A DNA stretch of 14,627 bases, taken from NCBI GenBank assembly GCA_002329665.1, contig DCTV01000048.1:1-14627 (forward strand). Direction: 5' to 3'. The first letter of the stretch is position 1, and each line of letters begins with the position of its first letter. The position numbers were made by a program, and so were the translations under genes. Below are positions 3,216 through 12,239 of this stretch, in pieces. Under the pieces are notes generated by a model that was not told the DNA's origin, made no database searches, and saw only the letters and a program-made list of their open reading frames with translations. This stretch comes from Christensenella sp. UBA1431 (GTDB lineage: Bacteria; Bacillota; Clostridia; Christensenellales; UBA1431).

Positions 3216-4148
3216 TTAAACGATCCCTATCGTATCGTTCGCGTCTTTTTTTTCGGCGGGAGCCTGGCTGAACTCCTTCATCCCGCAAAGGATCCGTTCG
3301 ATATAATTCTGGAGTTCCTGGGTCCGGAAATTCTCAGGGTTCTCCTGTATAATATCCTTGTTGATGTCGATGAGTTGCCTCAGGAGGGAAGCGAGCAGGC
3401 TGTTTTGCTCGCGCAGGTCCTCGTACTGCCTTCGCTGGGTGGACAACTGGAGCTTCAATGCCTGGACCTCGTTCTGCACGCGCTGGTTCTCCTCGTTTTT
3501 CACGGCGCCGGCCATCGTGCCGAGTGCCGCGAACAATTCCCTGGAGGCTTCCGGCGCCACTTTTTCCCAGTCCTGGGCCGCGCGCAGGGCGCTTTCGGCC
3601 ACGCCTTCCGCCTTGCGCATGCGCTTGCGTCCGCGAGAAGAGGAGTATTCGTAGGGGTTGACGAACGGCGTGCCTTCGGCCCTGAGTTCATCCATGACGG
3701 ACTGCACCAGTTCCGGGCTGTTGCGGATCACGCTGCGGTATTTGTTCTGGTAGCGCAGCATGGCCTTGTTGTCGCCCTTCCCCATCTCCAGGGTGCACGC
3801 GCGCACCGACTGGCCGCGCGCCTGAGCGCACAGGACCCGTTTGAGCACCTCGCGTACCTCGTGCTCCTGAAACGGAACGAAGGCGGTGACTTCCGGCATG
3901 CTCGAATCGCTGAAGTCTCCCGATTCCTTCCGTTCACGCACCTTGCTGTAATAGTAGTTCCGTATGCTGTTGGCCTTCCTGCCGGTCGCCTGCGAAACCG
4001 CCTCAAAAACGCTCTTGAGCGGTTTTCCTGCCTTCCTCACGCGCGACACTTCTTCCCAGAGAAGCGCGTCTTCCCACTCCTGCCATCCGGCGTGCACGGG
4101 CGGCTTGCTCTTTTTCATCTGGTTTTCACTTATTGTATTACGGGTCAT
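3216..4148 (-). CDS. Myb/SANT-like DNA-binding protein with C-terminal coiled coil (RsfA-like)
   Basis: A 310-residue protein of a type widespread but poorly characterised in Clostridia. Residues about 22-70 form a Myb/SANT-like unit: W22, W25 and W31, then a predicted helix-turn-helix ending in NSIRNYYYSKV, typical of RsfA-like regulators of sporulation genes. The middle (about 85-150) resembles a repeated helical unit containing ARGQSVRACTLEMGKGDNKA. Residues about 215-270 are rich in E, Q, L and R in a coiled-coil pattern (EVQALKLQLSTQRRQYEDLR), suggesting oligomerisation. The ATG at 4148 is preferred because a G-rich stretch (GGGGGG) lies 9 nt upstream; the internal ATG at 4118 has no ribosome binding site. 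It is a single gene with its own terminator. A role as a sporulation or cell-state transcription regulator is inferred from the Myb-like fold and has not been shown. Confidence 0.8.
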   Translation of the reverse strand: MTRNTISENQMKKSKPPVHAGWQEWEDALLWEEVSRVRKAGKPLKSVFEAVSQATGRKANSIRNYYYSKVRERKESGDFSDSSMPEVTAFVPFQEHEVREVLKRVLCAQARGQSVRACTLEMGKGDNKAMLRYQNKYRSVIRNSPELVQSVMDELRAEGTPFVNPYEYSSSRGRKRMRKAEGVAESALRAAQDWEKVAPEASRELFAALGTMAGAVKNEENQRVQNEVQALKLQLSTQRRQYEDLREQNSLLASLLRQLIDINKDIIQENPENFRTQELQNYIERILCGMKEFSQAPAEKKDANDTIGIV

Positions 4149-4223
4149 CGGCTTTACCCCCCGAGTATTGTTTTGTGGTTATTATTGACATGGTTCTGCC
4201 AAACTATACCAGATTGTGTACCG

Positions 4224-4258
4224 AAAATAAAAAAGCAAAGAGGTTTCCCTTTGCTTTT
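4224..4258 (-). terminator. Rho-independent terminator, minus strand (asnS transcript)
   Basis: Stem AAAAGCAAAG (4231-4240) / CTTTGCTTTT (4249-4258) with an 8-nt loop that can close further through GG/CC. On the minus strand it runs into TTTTTTATTTT. It is the first clear terminator after asnS, about 225 nt past the asnS stop, and lies just upstream of the Myb-like gene, separating the two transcripts. A second hairpin, stable only as minus-strand RNA (one G-U pair), lies at 4288-4311. Confidence 0.75.
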
Positions 4259-10723: not shown

Positions 10724-10812
10724 GCCCAGGCCCTTTAAAACACGGATTTGGCTGAAATTTTACCGAAAAACGGACGGGTATATATACATTTCGGGGAGCG
10801 TAAACGGAAAAA

Positions 10813-10834
10813 CGCCCCGTTGAGGGGCAGGCAG
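10813..10834 (+). repeat. Flanking direct repeat, left copy
   Basis: CGCCCCGTTGAGGGGC (10813-10828) is repeated exactly at 11001-11016. The similarity continues over six more bases with two A/G differences, giving 20 of 22 identical. The two copies form the outermost hairpins of the array. Confidence 0.8.
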
Positions 10835-11018
10835 ACTATCTAAAAAGCCTACTAGCAGGGGGTGTGGGGGATGCAATCCCCCACTTTCAATCCAATCTGA
10901 CGACATGTGCGTCAGATTGGCGGGAAAAATGCCGCCTAAGCGGCATTTTAACCACGCAGAAAACCGTCGACAAATCCCGAGGGTTTGTCAACGGCCTAAC
11001 CGCCCCGTTGAGGGGCGG
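10814..11018. repeat. Tandem array of six different hairpins
   Basis: This noncoding stretch is almost entirely made of short inverted repeats in series. H1 is 10814-10828 (5-bp stem, loop GTTGA). H2 is 10864-10884 (9-bp perfect stem GTGGGGGAT, loop GCA). H3 is 10892-10920 (11-bp perfect stem CCAATCTGACG, loop of 7). H4 is 10926-10949 (10-bp perfect stem AAAATGCCGC, loop CTAA). H5 is 10964-10994 (14 positions, one mismatch, one G-T pair, loop of 3). H6 is 11000-11018 (7-bp perfect stem CCGCCCC, loop GTTGA). It lies between the 3' end of the epimerase-like gene and the promoter of the mini-lipoprotein operon, both on the minus strand. It is not CRISPR: the units differ in sequence and there are no spacers. 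It may be a structured RNA, a multi-terminator insulator or a dispersed palindromic element. Confidence 0.85.
10925..10949 (-). terminator. Rho-independent terminator within the hairpin array
   Basis: Hairpin H4 has a 10-bp perfect stem (10940-10949 / 10926-10935). Read on the minus strand it ends in TTTTT, the normal form of an intrinsic terminator. It would end transcription coming from the epimerase-like gene 93 nt upstream. On the plus strand it ends in only TTTT. Confidence 0.6.
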
Positions 11019-11022
11019 GCGG
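11001..11022 (+). repeat. Flanking direct repeat, right copy
   Basis: Second copy of the 22-bp element at 10813-10834, 20 of 22 identical and in the same orientation. The right copy has a longer stem (7 bp instead of 5). Confidence 0.8.
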
Positions 11023-11041
11023 CAGGATTTGCGGCCTCGGT

Positions 11042-12073
11042 CTATTGCCTTTTCGTTTTTTTGCGGGCTTTCCTGTCGGTCCGGCGCTGTTTTCTATCCC
11101 GATCGAACCAGGCCACGCTGTCACGGAGGCTGTCCGATACGGGCCTCGCCCTGTAGCCCAGCTCTTTGCGGGCTTTCGCCGAACTGATAAACGCGTTGGA
11201 CCGCAGCACCTCGACGGCATATCTCGTAAAAACCGGTTTTTTGCGGAAGACGAGGGAATAGATATGTACGAACACTCCCGCGAGCTTAACAAGGGGCAAC
11301 GGCACCCGGACCAGCTTTTTTCGCGCGCCGCGTATGCTCAGAAGGTGCGTGTAGATCTCTTTGATGCTGGCCTTTTCGCCCGAGACGATGTAGCCTTCGC
11401 CGCGGCGGCCCATCTTCCACGCGAGCACGAGCGCGTCGCAAACGTCGCGCACGTCCACGAAATCATAGGCCCCGTCGAAATAGAAGGCGATCCTGCTCTT
11501 CGAGCCCTTGATGAACCGCTTTATGAGCGCGCCGATCTCCGAAAGCTTATAGTCGAACGGGCCTATAACGCCGGACGGGAAAAGGATGACGGCGTCCAGC
11601 CCGCGCGCGATGCCTTCCTGCACGATGCGCGTCGCCCTGGCTTTGGAATTGGCGTATCCGCCCGCTTTCGCATCCGCGACAATGCTGAGGCGCTCGGTGA
11701 TCGCCGACCCGTTCTGCGGTTCCTCGATGGCGTGGACGGAACTAATGTATATCAGGCGGCCGACCCCGTGGTGCAGGCAGGCCTCCACCATGTTCTGTGT
11801 GCCCCCGATGTTCACTTCTTCGATGAGCGCGTCGTTCTTTTTGGATATGCGCACGATGCCGGCAAGGTGGAATACCGCGTCGCACCCTTCGACGGCGCGC
11901 ATCACCGCTTCGCCGTCCCTGATGTCGCAAACGACGATCTCGGCCTTTATCCCGTTGAGCGGCGCGACGGACTCTCCCGGCGGAAGCAAAAGCCTCAGGT
12001 CCTCGCCCATATGCATGAGCTTGTTGACCAGTACGTTGCCGATATGACCGGTTGCGCCCGTAACCAGTATCAT
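11042..12073 (-). CDS. NAD-dependent epimerase/dehydratase-like (extended SDR) protein
   Basis: A 343-residue extended short-chain dehydrogenase/reductase. The Rossmann dinucleotide motif TGATGHIGN lies near residues 6-14, an acidic strand end VVCDIRD follows, then HLAG, the ISSVHA strand, and the catalytic pair Y-x-x-x-K in GGYANSKARA, with a later FPSGVIGP. This matches the branch containing dihydroflavonol-4-reductase-like and nucleotide-sugar epimerase-like enzymes; the substrate cannot be read from the sequence. The C-terminus ends in an unusually basic tail (KQRRTDRKARKKTKRQ). The ATG at 12073 is chosen because GGAGG lies 7 nt upstream and the Rossmann strand begins at once; the frame stays open further upstream but crosses the promoter. 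It is monocistronic, divergent from the Xre gene and followed by the hairpin array. Confidence 0.9.
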   Translation of the reverse strand: MILVTGATGHIGNVLVNKLMHMGEDLRLLLPPGESVAPLNGIKAEIVVCDIRDGEAVMRAVEGCDAVFHLAGIVRISKKNDALIEEVNIGGTQNMVEACLHHGVGRLIYISSVHAIEEPQNGSAITERLSIVADAKAGGYANSKARATRIVQEGIARGLDAVILFPSGVIGPFDYKLSEIGALIKRFIKGSKSRIAFYFDGAYDFVDVRDVCDALVLAWKMGRRGEGYIVSGEKASIKEIYTHLLSIRGARKKLVRVPLPLVKLAGVFVHIYSLVFRKKPVFTRYAVEVLRSNAFISSAKARKELGYRARPVSDSLRDSVAWFDRDRKQRRTDRKARKKTKRQ

Positions 12074-12110
12074 CCCGACACCTCCCAACAGAATACCCGG
12101 TTCTAATCTC

Positions 12111-12138
12111 ATTGTACTCCACATTTCATTTTTGTAAA
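12111..12138 (-). promoter_or_regulatory. Sigma-A-type promoter of the epimerase-like gene
   Basis: On the minus strand, -35 TTTACA (12138-12133) and -10 TACAAT (12116-12111) are separated by 16 nt; each matches 5 of 6 consensus bases. It lies about 38 nt upstream of the ATG at 12073, which supports that start. Confidence 0.7.
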
Positions 12139-12239
12139 GGAGGATTTTGGCTGTTTCTTTCTCAGCCAACTGGTGATTATTAATCCGATGCCTTTTTTAT
12201 AGCGCCGGGGACAGACATCCAATGACCATCAGCATGTGC

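What the first reader, a model, noticed from the sequence alone, without database searches (positions are those of the whole stretch)
10814..11018. Array of six unlike hairpins in 205 bp
Seen directly: six inverted repeats, four of them perfect with 7-11 bp stems and one of 14 positions, follow one another with short linkers and together use most of the region. Each has a different sequence, apart from the shared outermost element. This exceeds what a single terminator needs. A structured noncoding RNA, a transcription insulator built of stacked terminators, or a dispersed palindromic repeat element (like BIMEs in enterobacteria) would all fit. I do not recognise it as a known RNA family.
Basis: partly seen in the sequence, partly recalled or inferred. 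Interest (0 to 1): 0.7.

Follow-up and report, generated by a model that had tools for sequence, protein, structure and literature searches.

The report
Hairpin-rich jumping element in a terminator
The hairpin cluster is a small gene-less jumping element, present about twenty times in this bacterium, that has landed in the stop signal of a neighbouring gene and duplicated it, and it carries its own set of shape-conserved hairpins whose job is not known.

Summary
In detail: six hairpins lie in 10813-11019, folding better than 200 of 200 shuffles on either strand. They are two different things. H1 and H6 are two copies of one host terminator hairpin, that of the minus-strand epimerase gene. H2-H5 are the body of a 168-bp dispersed element (10832-10999) with 20 other places in the same genome. 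In 9 of 15 copies the two flanks match each other better than any of 210 mismatched pairs. IS1182-family insertion sequences found elsewhere share the ends (14 of 16 bases for this copy, 16 of 16 for sister copies) and a duplicated terminator-like hairpin. Six sister species of another host show the empty site. So this is an IS1182-type MITE that targets terminators. Unexplained are its own hairpins: stems covary, and a fixed-loop hairpin (H3) recurs across the class. Compensated changes separate subfamilies while close copies show mostly one-sided changes, which suggests the hairpins serve the element's spread. Against: no IS1182 gene was found in this 75%-complete genome, and only 1 of 30 IS1182 loci of the order showed such ends.

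The parts
10832..10999 (+). the element (MITE), 168 bp, oriented from its CAGACTATCTAAAAAGCC end
   Evidence: boundaries by comparison of copies; 20 other places in the genome
10813..10831 (.). H1: left copy of the duplicated target, the epimerase terminator hairpin with its T-run (minus strand, 10812-10808)
11001..11019 (.). H6: right copy of the duplicated target hairpin, without the T-run
10832..10849 (+). left terminal repeat CAGACTATCTAAAAAGCC; 14 of the first 16 bases equal the IS1182 element of L204
10864..10884 (+). H2, G-rich stem, preceded by a second G-tract
10892..10920 (+). H3, hairpin with loop ACATGTG, after the linker TTTCAATC (10885-10892)
10926..10949 (+). H4, stem AAAATGCCGC/GCGGCATTTT, 4 of 10 pairs with changes on both sides among copies
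10964..10994 (+). H5; its 3' arm lies in the right terminal repeat (10981-10999) and its 5' arm reads like a second copy of that repeat
   Evidence: reading of the repeat by eye
11042..12169 (-). epimerase/dehydratase-type gene whose 3' end faces the element
   Evidence: ORF; PF01370 113 bits

Best explanation
A non-autonomous transposable element (MITE) with ends of the IS1182 insertion-sequence type inserted into the intrinsic terminator of the epimerase gene. Shown: shared ends with IS1182 elements found elsewhere, the duplicated hairpin on both sides, many copies, and empty sites in sister species of another host. Inferred: an IS1182-type transposase acting in trans cut the target on both sides of the hairpin, so that repair left the terminator hairpin at each end (H1, H6); as one copy keeps the T-run, the gene keeps its terminator and the insertion is nearly harmless. 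Inferred and weaker: H2-H5 are kept as hairpins in the lineages that still move, as folded recognition sites or as blocks to incoming transcription, H3 with its fixed loop being the likeliest recognition site.
For: 20 other places; 9 of 15 copies with own flank pair above all 210 mismatched pairs; 29 of 55 TIR-bounded H3 sites with a direct repeat above the 99th percentile of 2970 mismatched pairs, 21 of the 29 with a stem of at least 8 pairs against 5.5% of shuffled repeats; L204 and L352 IS1182 elements between 25- and 26-bp duplicated hairpins; a 30-bp duplicated hairpin around an IS1182 element of a Sutcliffiella horikoshii plasmid; left end 16 of 16 bases equal to L204 in four copies; empty sites in 6 of 7 other species of the genus of G357; covariation 26 against 8.5 cells.
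Against: No IS1182 transposase found in G000 (14.4 bits only), which is 75% complete. Only 3 of 33 IS1182 loci showed such ends with a target repeat, one of them the same element as L204 and only one (L362) from the order. 6 of 15 own-genome copies lack a matching flank pair. None of 33 IS1182 loci carries the H3 16-mer, so the inner hairpins have no known source. The L135 element has different hairpins on its two sides.
Confidence: 0.85

Rival explanations
1. A mobile structured noncoding RNA: the plus strand is transcribed and H2-H4, above all H3, act as an RNA, spread by the MITE ends.
For: Covarying stems. In H3 the inner pair is G-G 37, G-T 27, A-T 22 of 94 and the loop ends swap from A..G to G..A in a few sequences, which suits plus-strand purine pairs better than the minus strand. 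82 G.T against 31 A.C in model-found copies.
Against: That asymmetry leans on a model that favours G.T; in 37 pattern-found copies it is 15 to 6 in H2 and 1 to 6 in outer H3. Both orientations to the nearest gene. No Rfam match at gathering threshold. No recurrent neighbour gene.
Confidence: 0.15
2. The hairpins are a mutational by-product: template switching turns imperfect palindromes into perfect ones, so covariation needs no function.
For: Stems are nearly all Watson-Crick (521 of 555 pairs), as expected of copied arms.
Against: Loop and linker bases of H3 are also kept. In close copies and in duplicated target hairpins one-sided changes prevail (8 to 0, 51 to 6, 24 to 3), so correction is not quick.
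Confidence: 0.2
3. An insulator of stacked terminators evolved for the host.
For: H1 has a T-run on the minus strand; copies lie close to gene ends.
Against: The same body recurs at 20 other places, the outer hairpins are locus-specific duplicates, and sister species have one terminator at the empty site. Of the six hairpins only H1 passed the terminator scan.
Confidence: 0.04
4. A REP/BIME-like repeat moved by a Y1 (RAYT) transposase.
For: A short motif (CAATC) precedes an imperfect hairpin that is copied up to 73 times in a genome.
Against: No Y1_Tnp at E up to 0.01 in G000; terminal repeats and target duplication are of DDE type.
Confidence: 0.03

Closest known systems
IS1182 family of insertion sequences, with IS1272 of staphylococci as the studied member (PMC4923244 and PMC5678879, passages seen)
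   Same: hairpin targets, several of them terminators; ends CAGNCTGTC-like in the IS1182 elements found here
   Different: IS1272 is reported to remove the stem-loop without target duplication; here the whole hairpin is duplicated. The MITE has no transposase gene and carries hairpins absent from the 33 IS1182 loci examined
BOX, RUP and SPRITE repeats of Streptococcus pneumoniae (PMC3049150, passages seen)
   Same: small non-coding repeats with MITE features and predicted stable structure; BOX is modular; SPRITE is enriched near 3' ends of genes
   Different: other sequences as far as known from recall; that paper could not establish a target duplication for SPRITE, while here it is a terminator hairpin
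REP/BIME elements of enterobacteria (recalled)
   Same: dispersed extragenic palindromes
   Different: no Y1 transposase found; DDE-type ends and long target duplication
Rfam RF02937 Clostridiales-2 RNA
   Same: weak full-length match over H2-H3 of the window copy, 18 bits
   Different: far below its gathering score 58.6; no match at E up to 1 in 11 loci that included the window copy (a larger search in which 18 bits would not reach E 1)

Membership tests
MITE (non-autonomous DDE transposon) | many dispersed copies | tested here: met
   20 other places in G000
MITE (non-autonomous DDE transposon) | terminal inverted repeats | tested here: met
   left CAGACTGTC(A/T)AAAAAGCC, right (reversed) TTAGGCCGTTGACAAACCC; imperfect, judged by eye
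MITE (non-autonomous DDE transposon) | target duplication | tested here: met
   9 of 15 own-genome copies
MITE (non-autonomous DDE transposon) | no transposase gene inside | tested here: met
   168 bp; ORFs across it are not inside it, and copies differ by small indels
IS1182-related element | ends like those of IS1182 elements | tested here: met
   14 of 16 bases (this copy) and 16 of 16 (four sister copies) equal to L204
IS1182-related element | matching transposase in the same genome | tested here: not met
   none by PF13751; NF033551 14.4 bits, below cut-off 270; genome 75% complete, so absence is not settled. I therefore file it as a MITE with IS1182-type ends, not as a proven IS1182 derivative
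IS1182-related element | mobilised by an IS1182 transposase | not testable with these tools
   needs an assay
REP/BIME | Y1 (RAYT) transposase in the genome | tested here: not met
   0 matches to PF01797 at E up to 0.01
known RNA family (Rfam 15) | match at gathering score | tested here: not met
   0 in the window, 0 in 15 loci
BOX repeats | boxA, boxB and boxC sequence modules | not tested
   no BOX sequence was compared

The most novel reading that the evidence does not exclude
A DDE-type element family that uses hairpins at both steps: its transposase chooses host terminators by hairpin shape and duplicates them, and the element's own covarying hairpins, above all fixed-loop H3, are folded single-strand recognition sites needed for mobilisation. 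Shape is kept and sequence drifts in the mobile lineages, while resident copies decay.
Probability: 0.25. Interest if true: 0.75.

Novelty: new variant of a known kind. Interest (0 to 1): 0.5.

Why it matters
It explains a class of hairpin clusters in gut Clostridia that structure-based searches could mistake for RNA genes: the outer hairpins are a duplicated terminator and the inner ones belong to a transposable element. It also shows duplication of whole terminator hairpins by the IS1182 family, whose studied member IS1272 is reported to remove them, so one transposase family may have two outcomes at hairpin targets. And an element with a conserved hairpin architecture but no gene makes the role of hairpins in DDE transposition testable.

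Tried and rejected
Clostridiales-2 RNA (RF02937): 18 bits in the window; not found in 11 loci at E up to 1, a weak test because that search was larger; not adopted. REP/RAYT: no Y1 gene. Companion gene: clustering 2691 ORFs around 169 loosely matched H3 sites gave few clusters in 4 or more loci, the largest (11 loci) looking like transporter genes by eye and including chance records, others being repeats of one region or ORFs over the element; none taken as a companion. H3 inside IS1182 loci: 0 of 33. G.T against A.C as proof of RNA: 82 to 31 in 56 model-found copies, not clear in 37 pattern-found copies, so not relied on.

Limits of the counts. H3 16-mer: 32 of 396 genomes have a match, but the backward control also gives scattered hits (at most 2 per genome), and several single hits read as coding sequence; I use only the ten genomes with 4 or more. 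In one search the 99th percentile of mismatched pairs is 22 but the maximum is 84, because some sites have related flanks; three of the 29 positive rows (L458, L459 twice) look like tandem-repeat regions, and L310 and L345 have no hairpin; they are counted in the 29 but not in the 21. Of the 55 sites, 6 are own-genome copies, of which 3 are positive. In one search, 28 of the 29 duplicates were typed (the other has the same letters), L292 was trimmed, and for L003, L233, L234 and L449 the more intact copy was used; the left copies also reach 8 pairs. In one search, 18 pairs of target hairpins were compared; C73b, L302 and L281 were left out. Gene orientation rests on the longest ORF nearby.

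Literature searches: IS1182 family + target site duplication + terminator, 0 papers; IS1182 + MITE + palindromic, 0; IS1182 family + inverted repeats + direct repeats + stem-loop, 2; Christensenellales and repeat terms, 84 papers at two of five terms, 10 listed, none seen to be about this element. PMC8040213 and PMC9208149 were seen as passages only.

Full report
What is there. The six hairpins are real, and the stretch folds better than 200 of 200 shuffles on either strand. No Rfam family reaches its threshold in the window.

A dispersed repeat. Searching the window's own genome (G000, 1.53 Mb, 78 contigs, about 75% complete) with 10780-11050 gives 28 matches at E up to 1e-3. Leaving out the self match, five opposite-strand palindrome hits and the second pieces of two split copies, these are 20 other places, 71-94% identical. 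A covariance model (R1) built from 11 copies gives 38 matches, some overlapping or split. With the structure that I named, 26 cells change on both sides and stay paired, against 8.5 (sd 2.5) in shuffles, 0 of 500 as high, and 2-5 when partners are slid; one of the five measures, further pair types, is not above the shuffles (23 against 25.4). Related sequences can exceed such shuffles without structure, so the slid control matters more.

The outer hairpins are a duplicated target. The copies show a constant body and, outside it, hairpins that differ from place to place but agree left and right at one place. In 15 copies with both ends, the left flank was aligned to the own right flank and to the right flanks of the others (210 mismatched pairs). 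In 9 of 15 (win, C50, C31, C23, C26, C73b, C40, C17b, C30) the own pair beats every mismatched pair; C73a, C25, C17a, C72, C45 and C64 do not. The window pair is CGCCCCGTTGAGGGGC with neighbours (10813-10831 and 11001-11019). The left copy has the T-run of a minus-strand terminator downstream of the minus-strand epimerase gene 11042-12169 (PF01370). So H1 and H6 are that terminator, duplicated around a 168-bp insertion.

Other genomes. R1 matches 28 of 396 genomes of the order at E up to 1e-3, this one included (8 candidates scored per genome, so copy numbers are lower bounds), and 8 of 391 genomes of a class-wide sample at E up to 1e-5, seven of them outside the order. A pattern for linker plus H3 hits records titled Oscillospiraceae, Christensenellaceae, Ca. 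Ventricola, Ca. Avichristensenella and others, many of them gut MAGs, with some proteobacterial, planctomycete and other records that are likely chance (capped list). That the order is Christensenellales is inferred from these titles. Many relatives begin CAGACTGTCRAAAAA or nearly so, right after a hairpin that reappears after their right end. Over 55 TIR-bounded H3 sites, 29 have a left/right direct repeat above the 99th percentile of 2970 mismatched pairs, and 21 of the 29 repeats hold a stem of at least 8 pairs, against 5.5% of shuffled repeats.

Empty sites. The gene left of the L071 copy was found in 6 of the 7 other species of that genus (the seventh is 59% complete). In all six it is followed, by eye, by one terminator-like hairpin and no element in the stretch shown. 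For the L083 copy four relatives matched the left gene: one (L385) shows a single terminator hairpin, one (L386) shows none clearly, and in two the match ended inside the gene. No such comparison exists for the window copy, since no genome of its family was in the sample.

Which transposase. Among the loci with CAGACTGTCRAAAAA (capped list), L204 holds a 1502-bp element with ends CAGACTGTCAAAAAAGG and TTCTTTGACAGTCTG, a 25-bp duplicated hairpin and one long ORF, an IS1182-family transposase (NF033551, 410 bits, cut-off 270; PF13751, PF05598). A 93% relative (L352) sits in another hairpin with a 26-bp duplication. Over 33 IS1182 loci (3, 30), such ends with a target repeat were found in 3: L351 (the same element as L204), L352, and L362 from the order; 30 gave none, whether from divergence, truncation or other ends. 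Of four IS1182 elements read in plasmid and phage records, that of Sutcliffiella horikoshii lies between 30-bp duplicated hairpins, two (L467, L468) have a hairpin directly before a CAGCCTGTCGAAAAAG end while their right flanks were not in the stretch, and L470 shows only a right end. PF13751 is found in 27 of 297 genomes of the order and not in G000.

Comparison with print. IS1272 targets hairpins, some confirmed as terminators, with deletion of the stem-loop and no target duplication (PMC4923244, passages). PMC5678879 (passages) describes stem-loop replacement and says that a review reported palindromic targets for some IS1182 members without detailed data. The duplicated hairpin seen here differs from both.

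The inner hairpins. The order of H2-H5 persists in copies with quite different stems (L054, L071). H3 also recurs in AT-rich genomes of other families of the class (L426, L432, L434, L435). Its exact 16-mer is multi-copy (4 or more) in ten of 396 genomes, up to 56 and 73 copies, against at most 2 in the backward control. It is not universal: 22 of 34 first model-found loci have the loose loop motif, and L071 does not. H5 reads as the right terminal repeat paired with a second copy of itself; bare repeat palindromes occur in L304 and L447.

RNA or DNA. Of 18 copies examined, within 100 bp 6 have the left gene pointing in and 7 the right gene, C73a counting in both. The G.T/A.C balance is not decisive. 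Between close copies inner stem changes are mostly one-sided (8 to 0 at up to 8% divergence, 51 to 6 at 8-16%), as in the duplicated target hairpins (24 to 3); changes on both sides pile up between diverged copies (80 against 159 one-sided at 16-30%, then 156, 118 of them paired, against 154). Double changes rise with divergence by chance too, and pairs of copies are not independent, so my reading, structure kept in moving source lineages while resident copies decay, is a lean and not a proof.

Verdict. A MITE with IS1182-type ends in a terminator, well supported; the function of its own hairpins is unsettled.

Noticed in passing
G000 C40:4416-4702 (L034), C17:11623-11905 (L026), C32 around 4115-4244 (L064): A subfamily in which the H3 region is replaced by a longer hairpin-rich stretch of roughly 130-150 nt, with H4/H5-like sequence after it.
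   Followed up: partly
L304, L447: Palindromes of about 31-33 bp made of two terminal repeats head to head (such as AGACCGTCGACAACACGTTGTCGACGGTCTG), next to or at the end of an element.
   Followed up: no
L135, 1-1860: An IS1182 element with a terminator-like hairpin on each side, but two different ones, so no target duplication there.
   Followed up: no
G357 (L071, L098 and other places): Many copies in one genome, several 91-96% identical, with perfect or near-perfect hairpin duplications around L071 and L098: a recently active family.
   Followed up: partly
left ends of L204, L135, L467, L468, L469: The IS1182 left end is itself the arm of a hairpin followed by a T-run, which could shield the transposase gene from incoming transcription.
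   Followed up: no
Viral-contig loci (such as L101, L107, L109, L110, L111): H3-type modules also occur in contigs classed as viral, twice in the 5223-bp contig of L111.
   Followed up: partly
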